Source: Macrobrachium rosenbergii
Lineage: Eukaryota > Arthropoda > Malacostraca > Decapoda > Palaemonidae
Assembly (NCBI RefSeq): GCF_040412425.1
Contig: NC_089762.1
Coordinates: forward strand, 20,026,202 to 20,090,201
Length of the DNA stretch: 64,000 nucleotides
Direction: 5' to 3'
Below are positions 8,073 to 47,550 of the stretch, piece by piece. A program made the translations under genes and the position numbers. Numbering within the stretch: position 1 is the first letter of the stretch; each line of letters opens with the position of its first letter. Under the pieces are notes generated by a model that saw only the letters and a list, made by a program, of their open reading frames with translations, made no database searches and was not told the DNA's origin.

Positions 8073-8077
8073 CGATG
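8073..8077. repeat. Transib target-site duplication, left copy
   Basis: CGATG immediately precedes the CACAGTG terminus and is matched by CGATG at 11655-11659 after the right terminus. Five bp is the duplication length known for Transib. Confidence 0.9.
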
Positions 8078-8115
8078 CACAGTGGGCCAGAACAGTAACC
8101 CTTTGGACAAAATTA
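8078..8115 (+). repeat. Transib 3' terminal signal, 23-RSS-like
   Basis: Heptamer CACAGTG (8078-8084), 22-bp spacer (8085-8106), then ACAAAATTA (8107-8115), which matches the V(D)J nonamer consensus ACAAAAACC at 6 of 9 positions, including the first six. The spacer is within one base of 23. The first 13 bp are identical to the other end. Confidence 0.8.
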
Positions 8116-8518
8116 TTTTTTGCTTTCAAATCCAAGTATTATTTATAATTTTCTTTTATAAACGTTTAGAGTATTGTATTTATAAGCATATTTAATAATA
8201 TGAATGATATGTTTACCCATATTTTGTGTATTAGATAAAATATATGGTTAGAACTATATAACATTTATATTTGATACCTATTTGATATTCAATGCAGAAA
8301 AGTTAAGAATATAATTATAAAAAATAAGATTATTTCTATCAAATGCTGTTTTTAAAGATTTTACAATATAATTCATTTTAATGAACGTAAAGAATAACAT
8401 TTTGGTTATACTATTATACTATAGTAATATGAATATAGAAATAAAACCATTTAATTCATTTCAAAGAAATCTAAAATAACAAGGAACTTTAACACGTATT
8501 AAGACTACATGATACAAA

Positions 8519-10487
8519 TCAAAGAGTATTTTGGACGATTAAATTTTTGCTTTCTTCAGGTAGTTCAGTTTTTACAGGTCTGTCTACTTTTCTTAGAGAA
8601 CTTATCAAGGGATCAGATGAACAAAGTAATCTTCTCATTAAATCTTCATTTGTCTTTATTCGTGACGTTTTCCTTGTGAAAGATTCCCTAAACTTCTTGA
8701 ATTCTTTATTCTTTGCTTCTTGTGCCTCCTCAGATAATATGCCAATTGGTAGACTGAAGTTGCGTATCACTGAAGCACCATGAATTAATAACCGATGCAA
8801 GCTTTGGGGATGTAGTACCAGTTATATTTTTGTACATAACATTTGGCAGTGTCCAAGCAAAACCTTTCAAATTTATCTGCATTGAAATCAAGACCAGATG
8901 ACAATGTTGATAAAATCACAAAGTTTATAAACAAAGGATTGATCGAGGCCAGTAATTTCGGATGCAATTTCTGCATTCTTGAGAAACCTGTGAGCAGTAT
9001 TTCCATCATTAGATGTACTAAAACCAGATGGTTTTGGCATATCAATTACTAAACCTACTTCATCACGAAACTTTTTTTTGAATCGATTCCTTCCTCTTAT
9101 TTACTGACTTTTCTTCAGAAGTACGTGCTTGCCATTTCTTTATATCAATTTTGTAAGATTATGTAGGCAACATTCCATGCACCTAATCAATGCGTGAAGG
9201 GTAGATAAGCCGTGTTTCAATGCTTCTTGACTTAAAGGACGGGTTTTCACTTCTTCGATGTTATTTAGGATTTTAGGAGAGGCTCCACATATAGAACAAC
9301 ACTGCATTGAATTTGTAACTGTTGATAGCGCTGCTGCCACTTTTCCATCAATCATGGTCAAACTTACGTTGTGGTGCACTAATAAATCATCGGATATTTC
9401 AGTAGGTCGTAAATTTGAAATACAGTTCTGTATAAACTGTTCTTCTTGAACTAACACTTGTCTAGTTTCTTTCGAAAACTTGAATCTAATTGGTCGACAG
9501 AAGAGTGGTGATGATGGTTTTGTGTTTTTCCTGATAACAACCTTGTTTTCAGGATTCAGTAAACTTACATTTAGCTCAAGATACCGGTACCATACTTGCT
9601 ATAAATAGACTATTTTCTGCAGCAAGATTTCTTTCAACATTAGCCGAGAGGCTTTGCTTGTAAATACTTTGTCCGGATGTTTCATCAAAACCAACTTTAC
9701 AGTCCAGGTATAACATATCAACTGCTAAGTTTTCAAGCTTCTCGAAATCGGTGATTTTCATAATTCTTTTAACTGTGTGATCAATCAAAGCCTGGAAATC
9801 TATTTCTGCATTATAATATGAAATTCTCCATTCAGAAGCAGGTGTTGGCAAGCACGCTTCTTTCGCTTCCCTGATTAAATTATAGGCTGGATAAAGTTTG
9901 CTATTTCTTTCAGTAGCTCCAGACCTTAAGAGTTGATAACATCTCTTACTTAGTGAACAATCAAATATTACCTGAGCCAATGCTTCTTCGGGAGAGTATT
10001 CATTTTTGTTACCAAAAGTTGTTTTCAATTATATATTTGAAAGCTGTTCAGCTAAATTTTTGTACCCTATTGTTTTTAAAATCTTAGATGCAGCATAAAA
10101 CATTCTTCCCGGCGAAGTAAGAAGTAGCTGTTCTGATTTACGCTTCCCTGTTTTTTCACTGGAAATCTCAAAGGTCTTGTTAGGACGACCAGGGCCTGCA
10201 TGGGCACTTTCTTTCCGCTCATATGCGATGTTATTCAACCAATCAGCATGTTTCTTTGTAAATTTAATCTTGCTCCTTTGTACAACTACCCATTTAGGTT
10301 TAAAGTTTTTGAGAAAATTAACAGATATTGACTCCGAAATTTCACTGTCATTTGTTATGCTGAAAAGAAAATCTTTCAATAGTATTTTGGCATCTTGGTC
10401 ATTAACATTTTTTATCTTTTTGCTTTTGATACCTCTATGAAGTTCTTCATAAAGATCAGAGTAAGTAATGATCACTGCTGAACCCAT
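8519..10487 (-). pseudogene. Transib/RAG1-core-like transposase, inactivated
   Basis: Minus-strand reading starts at the ATG ending at 10487. It runs through an in-frame TAA at 10029-10031, a frameshift near 9580 and further shifts near 9150, 9090, 8930 and 8790. RAG1-core/Transib landmarks appear in order: first catalytic Asp in GFDETSG (about 9684-9686); second Asp in TMIDGKV (9347-9349); CSIC zinc ligands (9287-9298), like RAG1 C727/C730; a STLHALIRCMEC segment; GNTAHRF; FNADKFERF; HRLLIH (an H-x4-H like RAG1 H937/H942); and the third acidic residue in LSEEAQEAKNKEFKKFR (about 8729-8731). RAG1 residue numbers are from family knowledge; the order and spacing are seen here. All three acidic positions survive, but the frame is broken in at least five places. 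No RAG2-like kelch gene is present. Confidence 0.85.
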
Positions 10488-10689
10488 TTTGGGATATCTT
10501 AGATTCTTAAGCTGAAAAAAAAGAATTAAACAAGATTAGCTTACAATGTAATAGAAAATAAAACTAACTAAAATAGCCTGAAGTGCTTCGTCCCCTCTTA
10601 TATAAGTACTGCTCTAAAATCACTTTCAAACATAAGGGCCTGAGCATTCTTATAGTCTCACTTTTAGTTCCATTTAAGAATTTCATTTA

Positions 10690-10830
10690 TGGGTGAGTAA
10701 CGAGAAGTGAATTTCCAGCACCAGAAGAACACTTCTCTAACTCTTCAACTGAACCAGCTGGGATCGATCTCAGAACCACAGGGTTGGGTTTTAAGTGCTT
10801 TGCCATTGACCCACTGATGATCTCTATTGC
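10690..10830 (-). repeat. Possible tRNA-derived SINE head inside Transib
   Basis: Read on the minus strand, a TCAATGGCAAAGCACTT segment is followed about 30 bp later by GAGATCGATCCCAGCTGG. This resembles the A box and B box (GRTCGATCCC-like) of a tRNA-derived SINE. No clear poly-A tail or target duplication was identified, so this is tentative. Confidence 0.35.
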
Positions 10831-11625
10831 AAATTAGGAACTGTAGTATAAGCAGTAAAGATTTCCTTATGCAATGGCTCCATGTCTTTCCTAATTTACA
10901 GGTTCTAGATATTTTCCTGCCCTAAACCAAGCAAATCCTTTGAACCTTAAAATCCAAAACTTATAGCGACCCAACCCCCTCCAACTTTTTAGGATGGGAT
11001 TTGCAACAGACCCTTTGAAAACACCACGTAGTATTAAGGTGATGAAGTACTCGTTAGCAACTATAGTCACCTTATGCCGTTTGGTTTCTCAGACTCGCCG
11101 GTTGAATGGCGCCATGATAGGGAAGGTAGCACTTCAGTTATTATTGCCCACAAAAGCTCGAAGTGCAAATTGCTGAAAAGAAAACAAATATTTTCACTTT
11201 CTACACAAGTTCTAGTATAATAAATTCCATAAGAGATACGAAGCAAATGCAAGCGAAAAAATTGCCGCACACTTGTTTTGTTAAATAAAAAATATTTTAA
11301 GTACTTTTGTAAATATCGATGTAACATGTTATACACAACATTTGAAATGTTTAGTCGCAGAAATAACATGTAGTAAACTTGCTGAAACTCTCTTATAAAC
11401 TAATGAAATACAGACCTAATATCACAGATGCTACATGCACCAATTCTGATGTAATCACTAGCATACTGGGAGAGAATGTACTTAGCCGATTGCATCTAAA
11501 AACCATAGCGCCAGTCTAACCCATACTCCTTAAATATAATAATATAATATACGGTTCCCTTTCTAAAAATTATTCTAATTTACGTTTTTAATATAATTTT
11601 GATAAAACTAAACAATAATTTTTTT

Positions 11626-11654
11626 GGTTTTTGTCCACCTCCTGGCCCACTGTG
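11626..11654 (-). repeat. Transib 5' terminal signal, 12-RSS-like
   Basis: Read on the minus strand from 11654: heptamer CACAGTG (11648-11654), 13-bp spacer (11635-11647), then a perfect consensus nonamer ACAAAAACC (11626-11634). The spacer is within one base of 12. Together with the 22-bp spacer at the opposite end this reproduces the spacing asymmetry of recombination signal pairs. Confidence 0.85.
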
Positions 11655-11659
11655 CGATG
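11655..11659. repeat. Transib target-site duplication, right copy
   Basis: CGATG directly after the CACTGTG right terminus; matches 8073-8077. Confidence 0.9.
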
Positions 11660-14235: not shown

Positions 14236-16673
14236 ATGTCAGACTCAAGTTCGACTAGCTTTAGGTATTGCAGCTAAGGCTGTAATACGTGTTTGACTAA
14301 GGAATCTTACGGTTCACATTCTATCTGCACAGATTGTAGGGGACAAATTTGTTCAGAAGACTTGCAATGTAGTGAATGTGTAGGCTGGGACAGTAAGAAG
14401 TGGAAGACTTTAAGATCTCATTTAAACAAACTGGCTAGAGATAAAAAGAGAAAAGCGACAGCCAGGCAGATTAGAAAGTCTTTAGCTAGTCAGGATCTGT
14501 TGATCATGACATTGATAATGTTAATGTCGAGATTGAAGTTCCTGTTATTTCTGTTGATCCCATACCCAGTTCTCCTGCTATGCAACCCGCTCCTTTACCC
14601 AGCTCTCTTGCCTCCAAACCCAACACCATTACCAGCCCTGAGTGTAAAATTGATAAAAAGTTCGAATTGATTGTTGAATCTATTGCGCAATTAGCCCCTT
14701 CGTTTAAGGTGTTATGGACAATAAGAGTGGTTTGGAGTGCCCTGTTGCTCCTAGTGCCAGTGCAGTGTCGGTGGAGTGCTCGATTGCGCCTAGTGTTAGT
14801 GATGTGTTGGTGGAGGAGGTGGCTGCCCGTCCTGCTGATTCTGGTAGTCGCCCCCTCGGTTGAACCTGTTGTTGAATCCCAGGTTGCAGCCAAATGCCAC
14901 TGGAAAGACGTATCCCTGGATGTGCATCGTCTTTCATCTAGCTCAGATGATTCTTCTCCCAGAGGCCAGTGGCGTTTTGTGGATGAATCACGCCCTTTGA
15001 AAAGGCATGCGGGTGATGTGTCTCATTCTCTTCCAGTGCAGTGTAAGAAATTCAAGGAACCTGTTTGCAGTCCTCTCCCGTCTTGCAGTCATTGGGACAG
15101 TCCGGAACATTTTCCTTCTGTTCCTCCCTTGGTAGAGTCAGAGAGCGGTTTCCAAGCATCCTGCTTCTCGTAAGCGCTCTTCGTCTAAGGCGTCTTCTTC
15201 TGAGCATCCTCTTGCACCCGAGACTCCTCTGGCTCCCGAGCGCCCTGCAGTGTTGGAAGCTCCCTTGACTGCTGAATGCCCGAAATTGTCTCAGTGCTCG
15301 TTGGCTCCTTGTGCTGCTGTGTCAGAGAGCCTGTCTTCTGTAGAGCGTCGCAAAGCGCCCAAGCGCCTGTTGCCGCCCATCCACTCTTTGATTCATGGTT
15401 CGCCAGCTAAGATGAAGTGCCCAGTGGCGCCCAAGCTTCCCTTGGCACCCAATCTTCTGTTGGCACCAAAACGTCACCGTGCTTATGCCGCCGACACTTT
15501 GACTCTTTGGCTGTTGTTGTTCCCCGAGCAGTTGGGCATTCTTCTGTCTTGAACTTCCATGCCTCAGGCTTTACCCTCTTCTAGCAGCAAGCACCCTCTG
15601 TGGTAGACTCGATTCACAGCAAGCTCAACAGTATTTTGAGCCTGTTGAAGAAGGCTATGCCAACCCCCCAACCTACGGACTTGGCTTTGTCTCCTGTATC
15701 CTTGGATGAGGAAGAAGTTATTGCTCAAGATGCCCGTCCTTCAGCTTATGCATCACTACTAAGGTATCTTCTTGCTACCTTCCCAAATTGCTTTTCGCCT
15801 GCAGCTCCTTCTTCGCCCGCATCGACTTTTCTTGGGGAGTCACAGTCTTCCGAGTCATCGAGACTACCCAAGTTAGGGCTTTCTTCTTCTGCCAAGAAAG
15901 CCTTGTGTGTTATTGAGGGATGGCTAGCAGAGGAGAAGAGGGAACAAGGCAGAGCCATTTTCAGCTTCCTTCTAGATTGTCCAAGATGAGGCAGCTCTCT
16001 TATGCCACAGGGGAAGCTCCTTCTGTGGGAGTTTCTGCCTCTTCCTAGGGGTACTTCTCTGGGTTGATCGATTTCTTGTAGATCTGCCTTTGTTTCAGCG
16101 AAGATCATGTTCAGTTCGACGGAGCTCTCACACCTTAAAAACTTGTTTTAGGTGTTCGAAGTGTTGAGTTTTCTCGATTGGGCAGTGGGCCCTCTTCCCT
16201 ATAAGATTAAGGACTGCTCTACCATTCCTGAAGATAGTGCCTCCGACTTGCTGGGGGTCCTCTCGTGTATCAGTAAAGGAATCAGGGATGGTTCCCAGGA
16301 ATTAGCTTTCCTTTACACAATGGGAGTTCTAAAGAAGAGAGAACTGTGGTGTTCCTACATCTCTAGGGGAGTGACTCCCTCCCAGAAGTTGGCCCTTATG
16401 TTTTCCCCGCTGGATCATCATCACCTGTTCAAGCAGGCTACAGTTCTGGAGCTTTCTTTGGATCTTCAGAAGAAGAATACGCAAGATCTTCTTGCCCAAT
16501 ACTCTAGGCGACCTAAGGAGGTGCCCGCTCATTCCTCCAGGACAGTCTCCCCGCTGCAGACTCGGCCCTTTCATGGCAGTAGACAAAGATCCCTTTCTAG
16601 ATCCTGTTCGTCCAGCAGATTTGTCTCCAGAGCCATTAAGAGATCCTCATCCTGTTCTGCCTCTCACAAGTGA
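14236..16673 (+). pseudogene. DIRS copy A gag-like ORF1, frameshifted
   Basis: It begins MSDSSSTSFRYC and then meets an in-frame TAA after YCS. A Cys-rich head follows (C-x3-C, then C-x2-C...C...C-x2-C with CTDCRGQICSEDLQCSEC), a basic helix (KKWKTLRSHLNKLARDKKRK), a Pro/Ala/Ser-rich variable region with degenerate APK/LAP repeats near 15.25-15.48 kb, an acidic segment (15.6-15.99 kb) and a conserved C-terminal domain (16152-16673). That last domain has the GVLKKRELWCSYISRGVTPSQKLALMFSPL pattern shared with copies C and E. The same start and Cys pattern appear in copies B, C and E, which fixes the start. Probably nucleic-acid-binding; no enzymatic motif is visible. Confidence 0.75.
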
Positions 16674-16679
16674 GAATTT

Positions 16680-18130
16680 TGTCCGAACTTCTGTAGGAGC
16701 CAGGCTCCTTCCCTTCTGGAAGAAGTGGAGAGAGAAGGGGCCAGAGCCCTGGATTGTCAACGTTCTGAGGGAAAGCTATTCTATTCCCCTTCAAAGAAAA
16801 GCCACCTTTAAGCAGCTCTCCAATAAGATTGTCAGCGTACTCCAAAGGGTCAAAGAAGTCTTTGGCCCTCTTAGAAGAATTGTTGTCCCTTCTCAAGAAG
16901 GGGGCGATAGAATTAGTAGAGAATGTGGGCTCTCTGGAGTTCTACAATTGTCTTTTTGTGGTGCCCAAAGCTTCAGGGGGCTGGAGGCCCTTCCTGGATG
17001 TCAGCGCATTGAATGTCTGTTCAGAAGACAGAGTTCCAGATGGAGACAAATTGAACCATCATGTCATTCATTCGCCAGGGAGACTGGTTGACATCTATTG
17101 ACATGCAGGATGCGTACTTCCACGTCCCAATACATTGGGAATTGAGGAAATTTCTGAGGTTTGTGTTTGGGAACGAAGTGTTCCAGTTCCGTGCTCTATG
17201 TTTTGGGTAATCGACGGTGCCTCAAGTATTTATCAGAGTGCTCGCTCCCTTAATGAAGTGGCTCCATGTGATGGGAATCAAGATCTCCCTTTACTTGGAC
17301 AATTGGCTACTTTGGGCCCAACTGAAAGGGTAATGTTTGGAGGACCTTCAAAAGACTCTTCTCCTAGTCCAGGAGCTGGGATTGATGATCAACGTTCACA
17401 ACGGATTCTTTATTTAGGGATGATAAAAGACTTCAGAGTTTTCAAGTTTTTCCCTCACCAAAGAGAATACAGTCTTGCCTCAAGATAGTGCCCAGATTTC
17501 TTCTTCCAGACCAATGCTCTGCCAATGAATGGATGAGTCTTCTCGGGATGTTATTGTCCCTAGAACAATTTGTACTCTTGGGCAGACTTCATATGAGACC
17601 GCTCCAATTCTTCTTAAGAATCAGTTGGGGCAGGAAAAAATACCCAGACTCTTTCGTATTCCGAGTAACTCCAGAGATAAAAGAGGATCTGTGTTGGTGG
17701 AGCTTAGAAGGAAGGTTGTCGCAAGGGAAATATTTTGTTGAACCCTTACCTAGACTTCTTCTCAGACACGTCGAACCTAGGTTGGGGAGCTCTGTTGGGA
17801 GGCAGGAAATTTCAGGGTCTTGGTCCCTGGAACAAAGAAATTGGCACATAAATGTCAGGGAGTTGGAGGCAGTTCATTTGGGGTTACAATTTTTCAAAGA
17901 AGTATACAACAAGACAATCACAGTGCACTCCGACAGTACGACTGCCTTGGCGTGTATCAAAAACTAAGGGGGACACTCTTTCTCCCTTTACGAGACAGTA
18001 AGGGATCTTCTGTTTTGGGCAGAGCAATTTCAAGTCAAGCTTCTTACTCAGTTCATTCAGGGGAAGCTCAACGTTTTGGCAGACGAGCTAAGTCGCCGAA
18101 AACAGGTGTTACCCACGGAGTGGACTCTGG
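16680..18130 (+). pseudogene. DIRS copy A reverse transcriptase / RNase H, frameshifted
   Basis: Conserved blocks in several frames: VGARLLPFWKKW, an EPWIVNVLRESYSIP segment, EFYNCLFVVPKASGGWRPFLDVSALN (about 16.93-17.0 kb), DMQDAYFHVPIHW (about 17.1 kb), LYLDNWL (17.29 kb), the thumb, then RNase H with WHINVRELEAVHLGLQFF and TVHSDSTTALACIKN (17.84-17.97 kb). The domain order is that of DIRS/Ngaro pol. The second catalytic Asp of YLDD is Asn (codon AAT at 17301-17303). Stops and shifts abolish function. Confidence 0.8.
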
Positions 18131-18479
18131 ATCCTAATGTTTGCTCGGATCTTTGGAAGTTTTGGGGGACTCCGGTCATAGACCTGTTCATGACTTCCAG
18201 AAACCATCATCTCCCTCTGTTTTGCTTGCCAGTTCCGGATCCTTTAGCATTGACAACCAATGCCATGCTTCAGGACTGGTCAAACAGTCACCTTTGTGCG
18301 TTTCCCCCCTTCAGCATGATAAGACAGGTGATCAACAAATTCCAGACTTGCCAAAATCTGTCAATGATCCTAGTGGCCCCCTTTTGGCCAATGAAGGAAT
18401 GTTCCTGGATCTTCTTGACTTCCTCGCAGACTTTTTGAGGCTGCTACCTCAAAAACCTCATCTGCTAAAACAACTCCAC

Positions 18480-19560
18480 TTCTGGCATTTTCATCATGGA
18501 TTGTCTACTCTGGTCCTGACAGGATACAGACTGTCAGGAAACTTCTTAGAAAGAAGGGGTTTTCAAGATTGGCTTCGCAAGCTATTGGTAAATGCAGGTG
18601 ACAGTCCTCTGATAGAGTATATCAGGCTAAGTGGACAATTTTCAGAGAATGGTGCAGGAAGCATAGAGTGTTGTCTTCTCAGACATCTATAGCCAAATGG
18701 CAAACTTTTCACTATATCTTAAGACCAACAGGAACCTGTCAGCCTCGATGATCAAGGGTTATAGGGCCATGTTAAGCTCTGTCTTCAGACAACAGGATTT
18801 ATCTGATCTGATTAGACCGTTTGACACTACGAGACAGAGAGAGGTATTAGCAGTGCCATGGAACCTGGACGTGGTCCTTAAATGGTTGTCTGGTCCCCGA
18901 TTTGAGCCTATGCATTCGATTTTCCTGAGAGATCTAACAAGAAAGACCCTCTTTCTAGTCGCTTTAGCAACCGCAAAATGAATCAGTGAGGTCCATGCAA
19001 TAGACAAAAGAGTGGTTTTTTCCAAAAGAATGCTATCTGTCCCTTCTCCTTGGGATTTCGAGCCAAGAATGAGTCCAGTTCCAATCCATGGCCTCGTTCC
19101 TTTGCAATTAAAAGCTTGTCTGAGATTGTAGGCCCAAATGAGGAAGAGAGAGTATTGTGTCCTGTGAGAGCTGTAAGGTTTTATCTTCACAGAACAGAGA
19201 AGATTCATGGTCCTTCAAGCGCCTTATGGTGTTCTGTTAAGAATCCTTCTTGGCCACTTTCAAGAATGCCCTGGCACTCTTCCTTAGAGACCTCATCTCG
19301 GAAACCCATTCTTCTGTTGAAGAGGAGGTTTTTCCATTGTGTAAAGTGAGAGCTCATGAAATTAGGGCTGTAGCCACTTCATTGGCGCTCAAGCGTAATT
19401 TGTCTCTCCTCGATATTGCAAGCAACTTTTTGGAAATGTAAGTCAGTCTTTTTAAACTCATTATTTGCAGGAAATTGAAACAGTTTACAATAATTGCAGT
19501 ACTTTGGGTCCAAAGTCAGTGGCTGGCATGGTGTTGGGGGAAGAAGCATAGGAAGTAATC
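18480..19560 (+). pseudogene. DIRS copy A tyrosine recombinase, catalytic Arg lost
   Basis: Tyrosine recombinases of DIRS elements integrate the circular DNA intermediate. The core-binding part has SASMIKGYRAMLSSVF (18.74 kb) and WNLDVVLKWLSG. The first catalytic Arg expected after LFLVALATAK is TGA (18979-18981). The HEIRA box (His-x-x-Arg, about 19.35 kb) and a THYLQEIET segment with the likely nucleophile Tyr (about 19.46 kb, after a shift) remain. Non-functional. Confidence 0.8.
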
Positions 19561-19918
19561 CTTCCTTCCTTTCTTCGCCTTGATTTGAGGTTGTTGAGTT
19601 TTTTAAGGGAGCCTGGGGGTACAGTGTACCAGAGTGCCCTCCAGTCCTTCGTAGTTGGGCAGTGGTTTTTAACTTTTTGTGGTATTAGGTGATGTTTATT
19701 TCATTGTCGTTTTCTCTGTACTGCGCCCTGGGCAGGGGCAACATTATTACCTTTGTCAGCAATTGGAATCATCCTTGCTACAAGGTACCCACTAACAAAG
19801 TAGGCAAGCCTCGGCTATAAAACCTCGCCACTATACGATAAGGAAAGCGCCAATAGAGGCAGTACCTTCCTGTAGCAGCTTCCTTATCTTCCTTATCAAG
19901 TAAGGAAACAACAGGCAT
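19560..19918 (+). other. DIRS copy A 3' untranslated region
   Basis: Matches the post-recombinase regions of copy D (30818-31200) and, more distantly, copy E (about 57830-58200). Shared landmarks are GGGAGCCTGGG, CTGCGCCCTGGGCAGGGGCA and CAGAGGCAGTA...CTGTAGCAGCT. It ends where copy B begins (TTTTATATAAG at 19919). Confidence 0.75.
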
Positions 19919-20258
19919 TTTTATATAAGTAATTTAACCAGTAATTACAAAGCTATTAGTTTCTTTTAACCGGCAGCTTAAAATTTTGAAATTGCGGGTC
20001 ACGCTAGTTTGTTTTGGTTATGGCAACGTAATACAAAGAGCTTCAATTTGTTTCTGCCGGCTTTGGTTGAAGGACTGTGGCTGGCAGCAGCTTGAATCTT
20101 GAAATTTATACTTTGCTGGTTGTTTGTTCTATCTACGATTGGTGAAGTATTTATTTTTGTAGCCTTTCGGCACAATTTAGATAGTGTTAGGGGAGTTTTG
20201 ATCATTGGTTCACGACTTTTTGCCCATTTTTTTGGACTTGTCTTTGTAATTTTCCATG

Positions 20259-22148
20259 ATGTCTGACACTAGTAGTTCTAGTATAGGCAGTCCCTGGTTA
20301 TCGGCTGGGTTCCGTTCCCGACAGCTTGACGATAACCATAAATCGGCGATAATAGCACTGATCCCTGGTTATCAGTGCCGATAACCGGTTATCAGCGCCG
20401 ATACTGGTGATCAGTGCTGCTGATAACCAGCGATCAGCGACGATAACCGGGAATCGGTGTCGAAAATCGGTTATTGTCGTCGCTAGACAAGCGCCGTAAA
20501 ACCGGATTGCCAATAACTGAGGCTATCCAATAACCGGGGACTGCCTGTATTAGGTATTGTAGCAAGGGCTGCAATACTAAACTTACTAAAGAACCCTACG
20601 ACTCTCACACTGTTTGTGTTCAGTGTAGGGGACCAACTTGTTCAGTTGATTTATGATGTGAGGAATGTAGTGAATAGGATATAAAGAAGTGGAAGACTTT
20701 AGATTCACATCTTAAGAAACCAGCGAGAGATAGAAAGAGGAAAGCTATTGCCAGGGAATCTAGTAAAGCCTTGGCTAGCCAGGATTCATCTGCTAAGTTG
20801 GATGCAGTTGCACCTGTAATTTCTTCCGATCCTGTTCCATCTCCTCCACCTCTGTGCAATCCCCTCCTTTACCCGGCTCTCACATTTCCAATCCCAACAC
20901 CATCATTAATTGTGCAATCGATTGCTAAATTGGTGTCATCTGTGAAAGTTTTAATGGATAAAACTGAGTCAGAGCGCCCCATGGCGCCCAGTGTTAATGC
21001 AGTGGTAGTGGAGGAGGTGGCTGTTCAGCCCGCCGATTCTCATAGGCCAAGGTCCCTGACATACTCCCCAGCACCTGGGAGGAGTCAAACTGGCAGCCTA
21101 AGGGAGGTCGGTGGGGTCTGCCCCTGAGCAGTTGCCCCCTCGGTTCAGTCTGTTGATGAATCCCAGACTGCAACCAAAGGCCGTTAGAAAGGTCTTCAAG
21201 TGAGTGTTCACTGTATGTCCTCCAGTTCTGAGGATTTTAGTCCCAGGCACTCATAGTGCTATGCCGACAAGTCGCCCACTGAAAAGGCGTGCAGTGGACT
21301 TCGAGATCTCTTCTCCTGTGCCTTGTAAGAAGGGCAAGGATTCAGCGCGCCCTCTTGCAGTCACTGGGATAGCCCGGAGCAACTATCTTTTGCTACATCA
21401 GACAACGATTGTAAATTGGCGCCAAAGCGCCTTGTGGTGCATAGATGTTCTTCGTTGCATAAGAGAACCCTCCGTCAGGAGTTGTGCGCCCAGCACCTTC
21501 ACCTCTACAATCAGCGCCCGAACGGCCAGCAACTAGCGCCGAAGCACCCAAGCTTCCGTTTACAGATGAGCGCCCACTGGCACCCGTTTGCCATCAAGTT
21601 TCGTCATTGTAGTGTCATCTCGGACAGTGTTCCTTCTTCGGCTGACCTGATTCAGAGCAAACTAGATAACATTCTAAGTTTGCTTCATAAAACTCCTCCT
21701 ACAGCTCAGACGACAGCGGACTTATCGCTTTCTCCTGTTTCTTCTGAAGAAGAGGTCGTTCCAGATCAAGATGTTCCTTCATCAGCATAGTCTGCTTTGA
21801 GGTTCCTGCTAGCGGCCTTCCCAAGCGTATTTTCACCAGCTACTCCCTCCTCTCCTGCGTCAACTTTCTTTGTAGAAGCTCCCTCAGCTGGTTCTTTGAG
21901 GTTACCGAAACTGGTTCTCTCCTCATCAGCGAAGAAGGCACTGAATGAAGTAGAAGGGTAGTTCTCTGAGAAGAGGGAGCAAGGTAAAGCAGTTTTTTGT
22001 TTCCCGCTTTCCAAGTTGTCTAGGTCGAGTCATAGGTTTTATGCAACACGAGAAGCGCCTTCCTTGGGAGTCTGCCTCCTCTCAGGGAGACTTCTCCGGC
22101 CTTATCGACTCGGCTAGGAGATCAGCTTTCACCTCAGCCAAAATTATG
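20259..22148 (+). pseudogene. DIRS copy B gag-like ORF, interrupted
   Basis: Starts MSDTSSSS. A 264-bp MITE is inserted after the eighth codon or so, then IRYCSKGCNTKLTK continues. Cys blocks CVQCRGPTCSVD...C.EC follow with an in-frame stop. The Pro-rich and acidic parts appear at 20771-21790 in shifting frames (ELIQSKLDNILSLLHK-type segment at 21.65 kb). The frame ends where copy C is inserted, corresponding to about 16.11 kb in copy A. Confidence 0.7.
20284..20547. mobile_element. Tigger/pogo-like MITE, 264 bp, TA target duplication
   Basis: Inverted ends (T/C)AGGCAGTCCC(T/C)GGTTAT at the left and ATAACCGGGGACTGCCTG at the right, with TA on both sides (20282-20283, 20548-20549). Removing the element restores the gag reading frame. 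The interior is built of repeated GATAACC/GGTTATC and CGGCG words in both orientations and has no coding capacity. TA duplication and CAG-starting ends fit the Tc1/mariner superfamily, Tigger or pogo branch. Confidence 0.8.
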
Positions 22149-22465
22149 TTTTATATAAGTAACTTACCAGATAATTACATAGCTATAATTTGTCTTTGTG
22201 ATGCAGCTCAAAATTTGAAACTGAGCAGTGAGTGTTTGGGTGTAGGCATACTGCCCCACCCACTATCGGGGAAGAATAGGTACAGTGTGCTAAAGAGCTT
22301 TTTCGTTTCTGCTGGTTAATGACTGAACCAGTTATTAGCAGCTCTTGTTTATTTTTCATGGTCGGAGTCATCTTTGGTGAAGTACTTTACACAGGCAGCT
22401 ATTTAGCTTAGTAGAATTTGGATTTTTCTTGGATTGTGACTTGTTTAATTGGAATTTTGTCCATT

Positions 22466-24880
22466 ATGTCTGGTAGTTTGCCTTTTTACTGCAGCAAAGG
22501 CTGCAAACTAGACTCACTTCTGCAAATATGACTCATACCATTTGTTGTACTTGTAGGGAACAAATTTGTTACTCTGGAATTGAATTGTGTGAATTAAAGA
22601 CTGGGAGGGTAAATGGAAGACTTTACAGACACACTAGACAAATTGCAGCGTGACTGAATCAAAAAGCTACAGCTAGGACCTTCTGTTCTTCCTAGTATAG
22701 GTCATTCTCCAGGAGTTGGTATTGATGTTATGCCTATCCCTTCAATGCCTCTGACAGCTTTTTCTCCCATTTCCAGCCCTCCAGCCTTTCCTGTCACCCT
22801 TTACCTAACTCTCATTTTGCTGAACCCAATGCCATTGCCAATTTAGAAGCACGGGTAGATAAAAAATTTAATTTACTTGTCAATACTGTTTCCCAGATTG
22901 GGAGTTCTGTGAAGGTCCTAATGGACAAATTTAATAGTGTAGTGTCAGTGAAGTGTCAGTGGAGGGGGCTGTTGTAGTGTCCCACTGATGCTCCTAGACC
23001 AAGGTCCCTGCTAAACTCCCCTTGCCAACCTGGGAGGAAGCAAACTGGCAGTCCAAGGGAGGTCGGAATTGGGTTTGCTCTCAAGGTTGTCGCCTCATCT
23101 GAGGAGCCTGTTGTCCGTCAGTCTCAGGCTGTGGAAGAACGCTGTTGGAAAGTGTGTGAATGGATGTACATGCACTATTTTCAAATGATTCAGATTCATC
23201 AAAGAAACGCAGTGACCGTTTTGCCAGAGTTTCTAGGCCATTGAAAAGGCTGGGCACTTCCTTGGATTCTGATTTGCCCCCATCTTGTAAACGAGCTGTA
23301 GAGAGAGAGAACGTAGCCCTCTCCCTTCTTGCAGTTTTTGGGAGTCGCCAGCGAGAGATTCTCGCTCCCATTCAGGTGCAAAAGTGCATTCTGACCCCAA
23401 ACGCAGTGTCTGCCAGTCCAGATTATTGGTGCCAAGAGTATGAGCGCCCAGTGACGTTAGTAGTGTGCATAGCCTAAGCACCAACTCAAAGATTGTTAGG
23501 TGTCCAGTTTTCATCTCTAGAGCGCCCAATGTCCGAGCACCCATCGAATGAGCACACTTCGTCCGAGCACCCATCGCATGGGCGCGCAGTGTCTGCCTTC
23601 CCTGTTCGTGGGTGTCCAGATTCCGAGTTAGAAGAGCTCTTGTTTGACTGCTTGGAGCGGGAACGTCAGATCACCGAGCACTCATCCATGGGGCGCCAAG
23701 TGTCCGTGGAGAATGCAACCGCTTCCAAGGAGTTAGTGTCTGCTTCAACAGCGAGTGGGCGCCCAACGTCCGTGCATCCAGTCGCTGTGGGCACCTCTCT
23801 CGAAGTCTGCCCCACTTCTAATTTCTTCATGCCCCCACAAGGAGAACTTCCAGTATCGAATGCCTCAAAAGAATTTCCCTCTGTTGCTAAAGATCCTTCT
23901 TTGGTGCCGCTTCAACTTCGGCTTGATAGAGTGTTGAGTCTCCTTCAGAAGCCAATTCCAGTAGTGCAAGACACCATGGAACCCCCAGGATCACCTGCTC
24001 TGTCCGTTGAGGAACCTGCAGAAGAGGAGCAACCTGCCTCTCATTACTCGGCACTGCTCAGTTTCTTCCTGGTCTGTTACCCGTCATTCTTCTCTCCAGT
24101 TGTCCCTTTCTCGTTGGGTTCAGCCTACTTGATGCGACAACCACCAGGTATCGCCAGACTGGCACGTATGGTGTTGTTTTCGTCGTCGAAGAAAGCTTTC
24201 AGCCGCATGGATGCCTGGCTAGCAGAGAAGAGGGAAGTCGGGAAGGTGGTGTTCTGTTCGCCTCCCTTTCGTTTGATAAGGCAGAAGTATCTGTCTTATG
24301 CAACTGGAGAAGCTCCGTCCTTGGGAGTTTCTACCTCCTCTCATGGGGACTTCTCCAGTATCATAGATGCTTTCGATTTCTGCTTTCTCGTCTGCCAGAA
24401 TTCTCTTCACAGCCTCGGAATTAGACCATCTGCTTAAGGACATCTTTAAAGTCTTTGAGATCTTTAGTTTTCTGGATTAGACGGTGGGAGCCCTAGCCAA
24501 GAGGATGGAAGATTAACGCCCTTCCAGATAAACATCAGACTGGCTGGGAGTACTGGGGTGTGCTGATAGAGCCGTAAGAGATGGAGCACTAGAGCTAGCA
24601 ACCATCTTCACAACAGGAGTCCTCAAGAAACGAGATTTGTGGTGCTCGTTCACGGCAAAGGGAGTCACCCCATCGCAACATTCTTCGCTTCTTTTTGCCC
24701 CCCTGGACAAGAATAGCTTGTTCCTCCAGAACACCCTGGAACGGGTTTCAGTGGAGCTGCAGAAGTTGGTTGACTCAGGACCTCCTCACTCAATCCACCA
24801 AAAGTACTACGTTCCCCGCACGAGCCACTACAAGCACAGCTACTAGAACGTCATCGTCCTTGCAGCAACAGCCCTTTCGA
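22466..24880 (+). pseudogene. DIRS copy C gag-like ORF
   Basis: Starts MSGSLPFYCSKGCKLD, aligned with the other copies. The Cys region is frameshifted. A long open stretch (23493-24437) holds a degenerate SEHPS/GRPxS repeat region (about 23.52-23.8 kb) and an acidic/helical part (LQLRLDRVLSLLQKP). The C-terminal domain follows at about 24.58-24.78 kb (KRDLWCSFTAKGVTPSQHSSLLFAPL). Usual gag architecture for this family, longer in the repeat region than copy A. Confidence 0.7.
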
Positions 24881-24979
24881 GGTTTTAGAGGTTGTTTCCA
24901 GTCCTGACCTAGAGCCAACCTCCGAACTTCCAGACCAACTAGAAAACCCATTAATGAGACAACACTTCAAAAATGAGAA

Positions 24980-25840
24980 AATGAGACGTACATTCTCCGT
25001 GTTCCAGTGGGAGCAAAACTTTCTAATTTCTTGACAGAATGGAACAAGAAGAATGTGGAGCCATGGGTGTAAAAGGTATTGAAAGAAGGCTATGCTATCC
25101 CTTTCAGGGAGAAACCTTCTCAACGACATGGAGGTGTCAGGAACATGGTTGCCTACCGAAAGGAAGCTCCACAGCAGTGTAAAGGAATTAAAAGCGATTC
25201 ATCTAGCTCTTCAACACTTTGCAACGCTAAACTTCCACAAGACAGTAGCGGTTCATTCGGACAGCATGACCGTCTGGCTTATATCAAGAATCAAGGAGGG
25301 ACCCATTTTTTTATGCTCTACGAAGCGACAAAGGATTTTCTTCCATGGGCAAGGAGCAACGAGACCCAATTAGTGACCCACTTCATTCAGGGCAGGATGA
25401 ATCTCCTCGCTGACGAATTGAGTCATGGCAAACAGGTTCTACTGACGGAATGGACACTCAATCCACAGGTGTGCACCGGCCTGTGGAAGCTGTGGGGAAA
25501 GCCATCAGTAGACCTGTTTGTGACGTCAAGGAACCATTGTCTTCCATTACATTGTTCCCCGGCTCCGGACCCGCAAGCATGGGCAACGGATGCCATGCTG
25601 CAGTTCTGGTCAAACCTCGACCTTTACTCCTTCCCTCCCTTCAGCATGGTGAGGGAAGTGTTAAAAAAGTTCAATGCACACAACAACGTGTCAGCTACCT
25701 CAGTCGCTCTCTTTTGGCCACACAAGGAGTGGTTCCCCGATCTGATGAGCCTTTTGTCGGACTTCCCAAGGCTACTTCCTCAGAAGAGAAGTCTTCTCGA
25801 ACAGCAGCACTTCCTCCGATTCCATCAAGGGTTATCCACT
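24980..25840 (+). pseudogene. DIRS copy C pol remnant: RT stub fused to RNase H
   Basis: NVEPWV..VLKEGYAIPFREKPSQ (RT N-terminus) is joined near 25125 directly to VSGTWLPTERKLHSSVKELKAIHLALQHF and VAVHSDS of RNase H, so roughly 0.9 kb encoding palm and fingers is absent compared with copy E. The conserved post-RNase H block follows (NLLADELSHGKQVLLTEWTLNPQVC, LWKLWGKPSVDLFVTSRN, FPPFSMVREVLKKF). The stretch 25079-25897 is one open frame. Confidence 0.75.
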
Positions 25841-26730
25841 CTCGCGCTGACAGGCTTCAGACTGTCAGGGAGCTTGTCAGAGCAAAGGGATTTTTAAGGA
25901 AAGCTGGAGAGGCTATTGCTGAGTGCAGGTGACAATCTTCCTCAGCAGTCTACCAATCCAAGTGGGCAGTTTTCCGGAAGTGGTGCCGGAAGCGAGATAT
26001 CTCCTCTTCTCAAACATCTGTAGCCCAAATCGCAGATTTTCTATTATATCTTAGAACATCGAAAGGACTCACAACATCGACCATCAAGGGTTACAGAGCG
26101 ATGTTGAGTTCAGTATTCAAACATAGAGGAGTAGACCTGTCTTCAAACCAAGACATCAGCAACTTAATCAAACATTTGAATACTATTAGGCAAGCAAAAT
26201 CCTCGGGAGTTGCTTGGAACTTGGATGTGGTCCTCAACTGGCTGTCAGGGTCGCTGTTTGAACCTTTGGATTCATCGTCACTTCAGAATCTGACGAAGAA
26301 GACATTATTCTTGATGGCACTGGCTACAGCCAAGAGAGCCAGCAAGCTTTATGCCATCGATAAAAGGATAGGTTTCTCACAAGGCAGTGCTGTATACTCG
26401 CTAATTTTGGATTTTTTGGCCAAGAATGAGGACCCAGCTAACCCTTGGTCTTGCTCCTTTTCAATCAAGAGCCTGTCAGAAGTACTAGGTCCATCCGATC
26501 AAGAGAAAGTCCCCTGTCCTGTAAGAGCTTTGAGAGTATACCTTGAAAGAACCAAAAACCGTAAAGGATCAGCCCCTAATCTTTGGTGCTCTGTGAAAAA
26601 CCCCAGCCGTCCTTTGTCCAAGAATGCATTATCATTCTTTTTAAGGTCCGTGATTTCGGAAGCACATTCAGGAGTTCAAGATTATTTACTACCCTTGTAA
26701 AGTAAAGGCTCATGAAATAGAGGTTACAAA
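25840..26730 (+). pseudogene. DIRS copy C tyrosine recombinase, 3'-truncated
   Basis: SSSAVYQSKWAVFRKWCRKRD, QIADFLLYLRTSKGLTTSTIKGYRAMLSSVF and WNLDVVLNWLSG are intact. The first catalytic Arg is present in ATAKRASKL (26335). The stretch 26101-26700 is open. It is truncated in the KAHEI box, so the second Arg and the nucleophile Tyr are missing. Confidence 0.8.
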
Positions 26731-27490
26731 ATAAAACCCTCTGCTTTCCTTAACCTACTTTATTTCCTTAAATATTACAGTGACCAAAAAACTTGATATG
26801 ATCACTATAGTTCATCAGACCTTACTCTACTCAGTCTTAATCCTATAGTTTCCCTGCCCTTCTATCAAAAGAACCTTAACCTAAAGAAAAGCTATTTCAG
26901 TCTTAATATTACCCTAAACCTAATTCTTAACCTAAATCTACAACGTAGAAATCAACTATGGTCTCTATCACGTCTTCTTCCGATTGGGAGTTAACTTGCT
27001 CAACATCAGTCAGTTGTGGATTTCGTCTGACTTTCCTTGCAGCAAATGTGTCGAGATCAGCACCTTTAAGGTTATAGAGTCATGTATGGAGGAACAGGAA
27101 GAAGAGCAGCCTGACCAAATATTTGTTTCTTTCTTGCAGTCTGGCAAGAACATGTTCCTTTATCACTTCTATGTCTTATCCTTTCTGCTATTTCAAAGAA
27201 ACTCTACCACAGTAAGTGTCCTCTGTCTTCAGTTTTTTTTTTTTTTTTCCTGTATGCTACCACACAAGGTAGGCAGATGCTTACACCTTGGGTTGAAGGG
27301 GAGCAAGCCACACTACTCTGACACATTCAGCAAACTGCAAGTAAAAACAAAAAAACAGACTTACCTAGTGTACTCCTTCTTGACATACAACAAAAAATCA
27401 AACAAAAATAAAAACATCACAACAAACAAAACAGAACAATTAATTCATGCAAACGTCTTTCATCATACAAACCCAAACTTAACCTACCAC
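26731..27490. other. Unidentified sequence between DIRS copies C and D
   Basis: This replaces the end of copy C and part of copy B/D's gag. It contains CCTTAACCTAAA-like runs and a T15 tract at 27236-27250. I found no inverted ends, target duplication or domain. It could be another insertion or filler at a deletion. Confidence 0.4.
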
Positions 27491-28010
27491 ACTGTCTCAG
27501 AGATCGGCCCTCTTCTTCTCCCCCTTGGACAAGACGCCTCTTTTTCCTCAGGCTACAGTACTAGACATTGCCTCTGACCTGCAGAAAAAGAACACTCAGG
27601 ACCTGCTCCCCCAATCTGTGAGACTCCCCAAGGATTCTTTGGCCCTTCCTCTCTTCTGCTCTCCAGTACCAGATTCCTTAGCATGGGCAACTGATGCAAT
27701 GTTGCAGGACTGGTTGGGCAAAGATCTGTATGCCTTTCCCCATTCAGTTTATTGAGATAAGTCATAAAAAAATTCTGGTCTCATCACAACCTATCCATTC
27801 TTTGCCCCCTTCTGGCCAGCAAAAGAGTGGTTCCTGGATCTGCTGGAACTTCTTGCAGACTTCCAGAGACTGCTGCCACAGAAGCAACAACTTCTCAGGC
27901 AACCCCACTTCCGACGGTTCTGCCAAAGCCTGTCTTCTCTGGCCCTAACAGGGTTCAAACTGTTAAGTAACTGCTCCGAAAGAGGGGCTTTTCAAGAGTG
28001 GCTGTAGACT
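27491..28010 (+). pseudogene. DIRS copy D gag scrap fused to post-RNase H linker
   Basis: A gag C-terminal piece (ALFFSPLDKTPLFPQATVLDIASDLQKKNTQDLLPQ in two frames) jumps at about 27640 to LALPLFCSPVPDSLAWATDAMLQDW, which lies after RNase H in complete copies. Gag end, all RT and RNase H are deleted. Confidence 0.7.
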
Positions 28011-29007
28011 CAATTGCAAAGTGCAGAAGACAGTCATCAGATAAAGTCTACCAGGCTAAGTGGTCTATCTTCAGGTCTAGGTGCAGACGAAATAACGTGT
28101 CCTCTTCTAATATCTCTGTAACAGAAATAGCGGACTTTCTTCTGTTCTTACGTTCCACTAAAGGGCTTTCCACCTTTACCATTAAAGGCTACAGAGCAGT
28201 GCTTAGCTCGGTTTTCTGCCATAGAGGAATGGACTTATCGTCTAACCAGGATTTGTCCGACCATATTAAGTCCTTTGATACTGCAAAGTTTAAAGAAAAA
28301 CCTTTGCTGTCCTGGAATTTGGACATAGTACTTAAGTGGCTGACCAGTTCACATTTTGAGCCCATGCAGTCTATCTCCTTAAGGGATCTTAGCAGAAAAC
28401 TTTTTCAGGTCTCTTTGGCCACTACCAAAAGATACAGCGAAATCCATGCTTTGGACAAAAATGTTGGATTTTCTCAGGGGAATACAGTTTGCTCCTTTTC
28501 CTTAGAATTTCTAGCCAAGAACGAATTGCCATCGAATCCATGGCCTCGTTCTTTTATGATCAAGAGCTTGTCCGAGAGAGGAGGCTCCGTCTGAAGAAGG
28601 AAGAGCTCTCTGTCCAGTAAGGGCCCTTAAGTTTTATCTTCAAAGAACAAAGGCTATTCTGGTACATCAAGGAACCTTTGGTGTTTTGTGAAATATCCCT
28701 CTTGGCCTTTGTCTAAGAATCCCCTGACGTTCTTTCTCAGGGACTTGATCTCAGAAGCCCATTCCATCGTGAGCGAAGACTCTCTCTCCTCATGCAAGGT
28801 AAAAGCCCATGAGATAAGAGCAGTTGCTAAGTCTTTGGCGTTTAAATGCAATTTATCCCTCGCGTCGATTGTGCAATCGACGTTTTGGAAGTGCAAGTCA
28901 GTGTTTGCATCTTATTATTTAAGGGATATCGAAACTATGTACGGTCAGTGCAGTAACTTGGGTCCGTTTTACTTGGCTGGCGTGGTGTTGGGGGAGGAGA
29001 TGTAGAA
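27998..29007 (+). pseudogene. DIRS copy D tyrosine recombinase, nearly intact
   Basis: Two frames (27998-28594, 28688-29005) joined by one shift near 28585 give a full-length recombinase of the family. All four signature residues are visible: Arg in TTKRYSEIHAL (28430), His and Arg in KAHEIRAVA (28808, 28817) and Tyr in FASYYLRD (about 28916). The N-terminal KVYQAKWSIFRSRC and TIKGYRAVLSSVF segments are intact. This is the least damaged recombinase in the window, carried by a copy that has no RT. Confidence 0.85.
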
Positions 29008-36943: not shown

Positions 36944-39219
36944 GTAAGTATATCATAAGTATGCCAAGTTTTTGTTATATTTATGCTTACACACTGAATT
37001 ATTAAATATTCCATATTATTTGTATGCAGGGATACAGTGCCCAAGTAGTACTCAGTTACTAGCAATTTTTTTCTTTCACTGACTGCCACAAGCTTATTAA
37101 TTATGTTAGACCATTGTCCATTATACTGAGAAATAATTGTAAAGTGTACACAGGCAAAAATTGATGAAAAATTGAATATTGCAATACACTCCCGAACTCC
37201 TGAATTTGCCCTTAATCCCACCATTCAACAGCTCTCATTACCAATCGACTATTGGGAATTTTAACAGCCAGCGCATTAACGCTGCAGGTAAATCTCGTCA
37301 CTTGAGCTAACATAACAAATGGTTATAACGCTGACGCAGGTGTGCGCTGACACTCCACTTTCGTCAATTGCTTTTGTTCACGCTGCTGGAAGGTTGTTTC
37401 CTTCTGGAGTGCGAGGTTTTAATCCTATTGCCCGACTTCTCTTTGTATTTTGGACCTCTGGTGAAGATCTGGATTGTATTTACCAGTTTCTTCTGGTTTT
37501 TCTGGATATCTTCGAAGTGGAACGTCTTTTAGAATTGGATTCGCTGGTTCCCGGTCTCGATTGGTCATCATGGACTCGTTCACCTTCTACTACCATGCCT
37601 TCGGCTTCGACGTCGACCTCTACTGTCCCTATGACTGTGGATGCTGGAGCTCATTGCTTCTACTTCGTGCCAGAGACGGATGAGGACCTTGAGACACGAT
37701 AGACATTCTGTCAGGTATGTAGGAAGGTTAAATGTGATGTCCAGACTCATTGCGATGAATGTTCCAGTTGGAAGGCACAAGAGATGGAGGATTACATTCG
37801 TCATCGCAAGTCTTTGGCTAGTAAGGGCGGCAGATGTCTGTCAGATTCTCGTTGCCTCAAGTGTCTCAGGTTTCTGCTACAGATCAGTTGATTTAGCAAG
37901 TTCAGACATAGTCAGACAGATAGAGGCCAGGATTGCAAGTAGTATGGGAAATTTAATAGCTAGTCTTCTTCAACATTTCTCAGATAGGGATAGTAGTAGT
38001 GTTAGGATGTCTAATCCTTCTTCCTTTTCAGCTCCCCTGCCTGTTCCAGAACCAGCCCTAACGGGTGCTAAGGGTAATGGCAGAACCGCAAGCCTCCGAG
38101 TGGGTAGGGTCTGCCGGCCCCTTCAGTGCGGAGCAGGCAGTGAAAGTTCCCCCTACTCCCTTGTAGTATTGATAAATTTAATGTTGATAATGTTTGTCAG
38201 GATCAGGATCTAGGTGTGATAAAGGAGGATAGGTTTGGGTTAGGTAGTGAGGAGAAGGTATTAAGGGTGCAGAGTCGTTCTCCTGGACGGGTTCCGGTTT
38301 CGGGTTCGAGTGGTTTTTGTGCTCTGGCAAGAGTTTCACCTTCATCGCTTCTTTTCGGTCTGGCTCAGTCTCAAGTCAGTGTATCAGTTACGGTGGTTCT
38401 TTTGCTCCTAACTCACTTCTGACTGTTTCTGAATCTCCTACTGTAGTTTCCCCCTTCCCTGTGTTTCCTACTCCTCCATCTAGTAAGGCGGATTCTGGTG
38501 TGTCCTCTTGGCTTCTAAAAGTAGTTTGCAGGACCTGCAATTGGATGTGGTGGAATAAAGGCAGATTGCTGGGTCTTTCGACAGGTACAAACCTATGGTG
38601 AGAGGTTATTTTTCGAATAGTTTCTCTAACATTATAGAGTGTGTGACCCAGTAGTTTCCAGAATTCGTGTTGGATATGTTTCAGGATTATTGAAGGGGGG
38701 CAGATTCGGCTAACCTTCTGTCCTTTTCATTCTAAGTTTTCTTCTGGGTTATTTGTTGCTTCATCTCCTGCTCCCACATTCTGTTGCTCCTTTTTCAGTC
38801 TCCTCTTCGGCTTCTTCTTCTTCTGCTCTGGTCTTTCCTACGGCTTCCGCATCTTCCATTTTCCCTCCTTCGACTTTGGTTTTCCTCCTCTTAAGTAACT
38901 TTTTTTTTTTAATGTGTCTGCTATTCCACTGCCTCCCGCCTTTCCTTCCTCAGTACCGTCTTCTCCGGTAGGAGGAGCTTCTGGACAGGTGAAAACGCAT
39001 CATTCGCAGATTTTGGCCGCAGCCGTTTCATGTTCCATCCCTTCGGGTATGCGCAACCCCTTGCTTCCGCTCCAAGCGGCTGTTCCAGTAGTATAAGGTA
39101 GTTCACAGGGTTTGCCTGTCACTTCCAGTTTGGGTTTATGCTCCGCGGTTTTAGCAGGGCTTCTGGTACCTTCTTGAACAGTCCGTGGCTTTCATCACCT
39201 GCATTTTCCGTGGCTGTAA

Positions 39220-39300
39220 TAGAATAATTTATAATATATTCCTAATTAACTTAAAATATAAGATTCATAGAATAATTTATAATATATTCCTAATTAACTT
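39220..39300. repeat. Tandem repeat, 33-bp motif, two copies
   Basis: AGAATAATTTATAATATATTCC plus TAATTAACTTA occurs at about 39220 and again at about 39268. It lies in an AT-rich stretch within DIRS copy G's gag region, perhaps part of a small insertion. Confidence 0.75.
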
Positions 39301-39947
39301 AATTAATTCTTAGATTAACATAAGTCACTAGTTATAATTAAATTCTTAGAGAGTTTAAATAGCTTGTCTAATCCTTCGGGCCAGCCCTAGGAGAGTTGAT
39401 ATTAACTCAGTGGTCTGGTTAAACTAACGTTAAAAAAAAAGAAAAAAAAAACTCCGAGGGTAGCGTCTACCTCTTTCATTCTCCCTCCTTCTTCTTCATC
39501 TTCTTCTGTCCCTCTGCAAGCGGTTTTGTTTGCGCATTCTCCCCCAGGATTTAGCAGTGTGGGTTTGTCTACTCTCACTCGTTTTCCCCTTGGTAATAAT
39601 GGGGAATCGGCTCCGGCTTTTTCTTGGTTCAGCCTTCTCTTCTTCCCGGCAGGTTCAACTATGCGGATTCAGCTCCAGGTACCCGATTATGTGTGGGTGT
39701 GCAGCATTGTGGTTAGGGTGGTCCGCTTGCAGGCTCTTCATTGTTGTCCGGGCTTTGTTCGTGCCTCCTCCTTTGTCGGTCTTAGACCATTTGAATGTTG
39801 CGGAACAGGATTCTTATCTGGAGGTGCAGGAGATTCTGCCGGACTTAGAATGTCCCTCCAGCAGTAATGATTACGGATGCATGCTTAAGTACGTTACTTC
39901 TGCATACCCTCAAGCAAGAGCTCCGGACCTCCTGATTTAGTCAATTC

Positions 39948-39949
<2 letters not shown>

Positions 39950-39991
<42 letters not shown>
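39950..39991. repeat. Homopolymer T42 tract
   Basis: 42 consecutive T residues inside DIRS copy G. It might mark the poly-A tail of a minus-strand retroposon, or be slippage or an assembly artefact; no SINE or LINE body is recognised next to it. Confidence 0.9.
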
Positions 39992-39992
<1 letters not shown>

Positions 39993-43982: not shown

Positions 43983-44124
<142 letters not shown>

Positions 44125-44399
44125 ATGTTAAGATTAATTAAAATAGAAAACTTTTGTTGTGCTATTTTCTTGGCTTTTGCTTAAAAATCTAGAAGAATTT
44201 TCATGCATACTGGAAAGAGAGGATAGTTTGCACTGTACTGAACTAATCTAACCTTAGCTAACTTAAAAGGACTTAAAACCCATATTTATGGTTCTTTCAA
44301 AGATAACTTTTATTCGAAACTAATTTTTTGCATTTTACAATAAGATATCCTCAGTTTCAAGAACTACTGTTTATAAGCTTGTTCTGTTGTCTTGAAAGG

Positions 44400-45566: not shown

Positions 45567-47550
<1,984 letters not shown>

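What the first reader, a model, noticed from the sequence alone, without database searches (positions are those of the whole stretch)
8078..11654. Transib transposon whose two ends imitate a 12-RSS and a 23-RSS
Seen: both termini start with CACAGTG and are bounded by the same 5 bp, CGATG. From the 11654 end, CACAGTG is followed by a 13-bp spacer and a perfect ACAAAAACC nonamer. From the 8078 end, CACAGTG is followed by a 22-bp spacer and ACAAAATTA. Known: V(D)J signals are heptamer CACAGTG, spacer 12 or 23 (plus or minus 1), nonamer ACAAAAACC, and RAG1 is thought to derive from Transib-like transposons. Inference: this family carries a 12/23-like pair of ends in an invertebrate Transib without RAG2, so spacer asymmetry may predate or parallel the jawed-vertebrate system.
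Basis: partly seen in the sequence, partly recalled or inferred. Interest (0 to 1): 0.92.

Follow-up and report, generated by a model that had tools for sequence, protein, structure and literature searches.

The report
Prawn Transib with short-and-long RSS-like ends
An old, broken jumping gene, very likely in the giant freshwater prawn, carries at its two ends the same heptamer and A-rich block that mark antibody gene segments, 13 bases apart at one end and 22 at the other in nearly every copy read; its enzyme likely paired one short end with one long end, much as vertebrate RAG does, but asymmetric ends of this kind were already known in insect relatives.

Summary
Window 8078-11654 is a 3577-bp Transib with a 5-bp duplication (CGATG). 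Of the 30 best copies read at each end, 28 five-prime ends have CACAGTG-13 bp-nonamer (26 exactly ACAAAAACC) and 28 three-prime ends CACAGTG-22 bp-ACAAAATTA or close. So it is no private indel. A second family, whose transposase shares about 45% of residues (decayed copies), keeps 13/22 with changed spacer letters; a third in the same genome is symmetric 22/22. Spacing is thus held over deep divergence but is not universal.

Limits: among the families read, the exact vertebrate nonamer occurs only at family A's 5' end; family B's and all 3' nonamers match it at 6-7 of 9. No full-length frame was seen in 21 whole copies. No biochemistry was tested.

Not new in kind: 12/23-like Transib ends are reported for Drosophila and Anopheles (PMC8355894, citing Kapitonov and Jurka 2005), and Subgroup II Transibs are said to include both end types and an NBD equivalent (PMC9435367). 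New here: a case in an inferred decapod, and 13/22 and 22/22 families compared within one genome.

The parts
8073..8077 (.). target site duplication CGATG, left
   Evidence: identical five bases at 11655-11659
8078..8084 (+). heptamer CACAGTG of the 3' end (relative to the transposase gene)
   Evidence: exact in 23 of 30 copies
8085..8106 (+). 22-bp spacer of the 3' end
   Evidence: 22 bp in 28 of 30 copies
8107..8115 (+). A-rich nonamer ACAAAATTA of the 3' end (6/9 to ACAAAAACC)
   Evidence: exact ACAAAATTA in 25 of 30 copies
8519..10487 (-). broken Transib transposase gene: an in-frame stop and several frame changes; the three acidic motif positions (D, D, E; role recalled from RAG1 and Transib) readable
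   Evidence: joined pieces 51% identical to P0001 over 99% of the query; the same D, D, E columns are invariant in 16 relatives
11626..11634 (-). nonamer ACAAAAACC of the 5' end (9/9 to the RSS consensus)
   Evidence: exact in 26 of 30 copies
11635..11647 (-). 13-bp spacer of the 5' end
   Evidence: 13 bp in 28 of 30 copies
11648..11654 (-). heptamer CACAGTG of the 5' end
   Evidence: exact in 23 of 30 copies
11655..11659 (.). target site duplication CGATG, right

Best explanation
This is a decayed Transib cut-and-paste transposon, very likely of the giant freshwater prawn, whose ends hold a heptamer and an A-rich block 13 bp apart on the 5' side and 22 bp apart on the 3' side in nearly all copies read, and whose transposase likely gripped both blocks at each end and joined one short end with one long end before cutting. 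Shown: the anatomy, 5-bp duplications, family-wide spacing, the same spacing in a second family whose transposase shares about 45% of residues, and symmetric 22/22 ends in a third. Inferred: the catalytic core cuts at the heptamer, as in HzTransib and RAG1, whose folds the model of a close relative matches; an N-terminal region with a GRP motif, placed against the RAG1 nonamer-binding domain in some structural alignments and absent from the solved HzTransib chain, would bind the A-rich block; a hinge between the two would let the dimer reach 13 bp on one end and 22 bp on the other, as RAG does with 12 and 23. Whether unequal ends are required, merely tolerated, or only inherited by the family is not shown.
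Against: The 3' nonamer is only 6/9 and alone is met by 692 of 20,000 shuffles. A profile of the GRP region found no RAG1 chain among PDB sequences, and only 10 of 30 RAG1 rows extend into it, at rmsd 4.5-9.5. A 13/22 pair differs by 9 bp, not the 11 bp of 12/23. A genome-mate family has 22/22 ends, and PMC8289069 says most Transib families are symmetric, so asymmetry is not needed by Transibs in general. The lack of same-end pairs is what common descent alone would also give. Three of four family B copies with both flanks read lack matching duplications. Host name rests on one contig-length match.
Confidence: 0.78

Rival explanations
1. The ends are really symmetric: both carry an A-rich AAAATTATT block about 24-25 bp in, and the ACAAAAACC at 13 bp on the 5' side is an extra motif without a role.
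For: In family A both consensus ends do hold AAAATTATT there, and the 5' end scores 6/9 at 22 bp.
Against: Family B's 5' ends keep the block at 13 bp (ACAAAATTA or close) and have AAATTTTGA, not an A-rich nonamer, at 22. Within family A the 22-bp run at the 5' end is less conserved (0.926 against 0.981 for the nonamer) and varies in length.
Confidence: 0.15
2. The asymmetry has no function: the 5' spacer was shortened once in an ancestor of families A and B and has been carried along by descent, the transposase being indifferent to spacing.
For: A Transib family with 22/22 ends sits in the same genome; PMC9435367 reports both end types in Subgroup II; PMC8355894 states that mouse RAG1 alone has no 12/23 preference; copies of one family share ends by descent anyway.
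Against: Both spacer lengths stayed fixed while spacer letters changed between families whose transposases now share about 45% of residues.
Confidence: 0.4
3. The 13/22 layout is a private indel or a chance motif of this one copy.
For: None found.
Against: 28 of 30 and 28 of 30 copies; 25 against 3 for the pattern control; joint chance 1 in 20,000 shuffles.
Confidence: 0.01

Closest known systems
Asymmetric Transibs of Diptera (Transib5 of Drosophila melanogaster; Transib2, N1, N2, N3 of Anopheles gambiae), as given in PMC8355894 after Kapitonov and Jurka 2005
   Same: Transib with heptamer, nonamer and about 12 and 23 (+-1) spacers on the two ends
   Different: Host here is inferred to be a decapod; spacers are 13 and 22. 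Their letters were not read here (the 2005 paper is not held), so sequence kinship was not compared
HzTransib (Helicoverpa zea; PDB 6pqn-6pr5)
   Different: Solved chain matches the profile only from position 167, so lacks the N-terminal GRP region; its ends are described as symmetric with little or no nonamer likeness (PMC8289069, passages)
V(D)J recombination signals and RAG1/RAG2
   Same: CACAGTG heptamer; ACAAAAACC at the 5' end; one short and one long spacer within +-1 of 12 and 23; RAG1-like core fold of a close relative
   Different: 3' nonamer 6/9; spacer difference 9 not 11; mobile element, no RAG2-like domain found in the ORFs scanned
RAGL transposons: ProtoRAG (27/31 spacers, PMC8289069) and AanRAGL (13-bp and 10-bp elements, 4/13 spacers, PMC9435367)
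   Same: Asymmetric ends; AanRAGL's two spacers also differ by 9 bp; 5-bp duplications
   Different: They carry RAG2L and other second blocks

Membership tests
Transib superfamily | Transib-type DDE transposase | tested here: met
   joined ORF pieces 51% identical to P0001; a profile of such relatives hits HzTransib at E 4.7e-186
Transib superfamily | CACNNTG termini as inverted repeats | tested here: met
   perfect inverted repeat of 13 bp inside the element (14 with one flanking base); 23 of 30 exact heptamers at each end
Transib superfamily | 5-bp target site duplication | tested here: met
   CGATG here; 14 of 21 paired copies identical, 7 of 21 not
Transib superfamily | active transposition | not testable with these tools
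   longest ATG frame in 21 full copies is 407 residues, against about 650 expected
12/23-type asymmetric Transib | short (12+-1) and long (23+-1) spacers on opposite ends | tested here: met
   13 and 22
12/23-type asymmetric Transib | nonamer like ACAAAAACC at both ends | tested here: inconclusive
   9/9 at 5', 6/9 at 3'
RAGL transposon | RAG2-like (kelch/PHD) gene between the ends | tested here: not met
   no such Pfam domain in 14 of the element's 16 ORFs of 60 residues or more; short decayed remains could be missed
V(D)J recombination signal pair | joined by RAG under the 12/23 rule | not testable with these tools
   needs a cleavage assay

The most novel reading that the evidence does not exclude
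A RAG2-less Transib lineage runs a true two-signal pairing rule: its transposase must join one 13-bp end with one 22-bp end, a 12/23 rule held across families that share under half of their transposase residues, beside 22/22 cousins in the same genome, so the rule arose or survived outside vertebrates without RAG2.
Probability: 0.2. Interest if true: 0.75.

Novelty: new member of a known kind. Interest (0 to 1): 0.45.

Why it matters
Where the 12/23 asymmetry of V(D)J signals came from is open, and RAG2 is often given the credit for reading it. One arthropod genome that holds a 13/22 clade and a 22/22 family of the same kind of transposase gives a natural pair for asking which protein feature reads spacer length, without RAG2. 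If only tolerance is found, that too bears on whether vertebrates inherited or invented the rule.

Tried and rejected
Private-indel reading: rejected by 60 end loci. Symmetric-block reading: rejected mainly by family B. Within-family conservation as proof of function: dropped, because ends are only slightly better conserved than the 70 bp inside them and the search query itself favours conserved ends. Sequence link of the GRP region to RAG1's nonamer-binding domain: not found (best hits E 0.84-1.3, unrelated). Relatives in GTDB genomes and IMG/VR: patterns matched, none confirmed by tblastn. Family D (C9, C16): 5' CACAGTG-22-TCAAAAGTC, 3' end not found, so not called symmetric. Family C ends also have a 7/9 nonamer-like stretch at 11 bp on both sides; an idea that asymmetry arose by loss from such double-block ends was not pursued, as one family shows it. 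A 12-bp pattern scan of the genome was tried and never answered. Kapitonov and Jurka 2005 is not held; its data are quoted from PMC8355894 (passages). Other papers: PMC9435367 whole text; PMC7204232, PMC8289069, PMC6941560 passages; the rest search listings only. No listing shows a 12/23-like Transib in a decapod; some listings were cut to the best rows, and supplements were not read.

Full report
What is there. Window 8078-11654 is a 3577-bp element flanked by CGATG on both sides. Its ends are perfect inverted repeats over 13 bp (14 with one flanking base). On the minus strand lies a broken gene for a transposase; its pieces, strung together, match the intact protein P0001 over 99% of the query at 51% identity, and a profile of relatives hits the solved HzTransib at E 4.7e-186 and RAG1 more weakly. 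The 11654 end is therefore the 5' end. No RAG2-like domain was found in 14 of the element's 16 ORFs of 60 residues or more.

The ends in the family. The host genome (3.18 Gb, 78 contigs) was searched with each 123-bp end; each search listed 40 hits, of 47 and 49 candidates, and the best 30 loci of each were read, so worn ends are under-counted. By best offset, 28 of 30 5' ends have a 13-bp spacer and 26 of 30 the exact nonamer ACAAAAACC; 28 of 30 3' ends have a 22-bp spacer and 25 of 30 exactly ACAAAATTA; heptamers are exact in 23 of 30 at either end. The exceptions are one 11 and one 12 at the 5' side, both with damaged heptamers, and two 21s at the 3' side, one with an exact heptamer. Thirty 5'/3' pairs lie within 15 kb; 20 regions were fetched whole and, with the window, 14 of 21 have identical 5-bp duplications. 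The longest ATG frame in the 21 is 407 residues, and the identities printed between copies run from 85.6 to 98.3%: an old family, with no full-length frame seen.

Chance. In 20,000 dinucleotide-preserving shuffles of each consensus end, a perfect nonamer at 12+-1 arose 10 times in the 5' end, 6/9 or better at 23+-1 arose 692 times in the 3' end, and both in one pair once. The exact 13-bp signal occurs 25 times in the genome against 3 for the backwards control; by position 24 of the 25 are hits.

Beyond one family. A protein search of the genome listed 71 matches, many from other Transib families. A subfamily (L081, L082; matched stretches 75-80% identical) has, in L082, 5' CACATTG-13-ACGAAAACC and CGTCA at both sides; its 3' spacers are 22 in L081 and 23 in L082. 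The two share flanking letters at the 3' end, so they look like one duplicated insertion. Family B (11 5'-end hits; 8 3'-end hits) has 5' CACAGTG-GGCCAGCAGGTGG-ACAAAATTA: of 10 aligned copies I read 13 bp in 8, five of these with exactly ACAAAATTA; one copy has insertions and one has lost the heptamer. Its six 3' ends read have 22 bp; three of the six are one duplicated locus on C3, as are two of the ten 5' ends. Of four B copies with both flanks read, one has identical duplications (GACTG) and three do not. Family C is symmetric: 5' CACAGTG-22-ACAAAAATG and 3' CACAGTG-22-ACATAAATC, with CAGTG on both sides in both copies where both ends were read; its 5' end has 7 hits, six of them nearly full length at 99-100%. 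In a tree of 34 sequences (27 of 120 database relatives, 6 of 8 own copies read, HzTransib) A and B group with P0001-P0003, support 0.998; C and D fall elsewhere with P0016, 0.958. B shares 44.5% of residues with A copy L061 and 41.0% with the window copy; since these are decayed copies that is a lower bound (intact P0001, B's near relative, shares 49.8% with L061). Family D has a 22-bp 5' end and no 3' end found.

What this says. Spacer lengths stayed at 13 and 22 while spacer letters changed between A and B. The block at 13 bp is shared by A and B; the A-run at 22 bp in A's 5' end is not shared by B, which argues against hidden symmetry. The last three letters of the nonamer differ (ACC in A 5', TTA in A 3' and B 5', ATA in three of six B 3' ends read), so the exact RSS nonamer is a feature of one end of one family.

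Against the literature. Asymmetric 12/23-like Transibs are known in Diptera (PMC8355894). PMC9435367 reports both end types in Subgroup II; whether our family belongs to that subgroup was not tested. PMC8289069 says most Transib families are symmetric. The finding is thus a new member of a known kind, with a comparative twist. Origin (inherited or parallel) is not settled here.

Host. P0129, named Macrobrachium rosenbergii, lies on a contig of 56,530,555 bases; G000 contig C14 has that same length. Inference: giant freshwater prawn, Decapoda.

Noticed in passing
window 14278-28600, 37300-42700, 52400-57400: Many pieces of retroelements with reverse transcriptase and tyrosine-recombinase-like ORFs (DIRS-like by eye, name recalled); the RT at 54742-55704 matches prawn proteins.
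   Followed up: partly
window 8073-8077; L061-L080: Target duplications of family A lean to CAGTG (first C 11 of 14, fourth T 12 of 14, fifth G 11 of 14), the last five letters of the heptamer; both family C copies with both ends read also have CAGTG.
   Followed up: partly
L085, L086, L088: All seven hits of family C's 5' end are 99-100% identical (one partial), so it looks recently spread, although several coding matches hold many stops; the C11 copy keeps a frame of about 600 residues.
   Followed up: partly
L085:4380-4524, L088:296-340: Family C ends carry two A-rich stretches, at 11 and 22 bp from the heptamer, on both sides (7/9 each).
   Followed up: no
window 45570-45735; 2460-2604; 43986-44126: Long simple repeats: 83 GA units and TA arrays of about 70 units.
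   Followed up: no
P0047: A Transib transposase filed under a Rickettsiales MAG, probably animal DNA binned with a bacterium.
   Followed up: no
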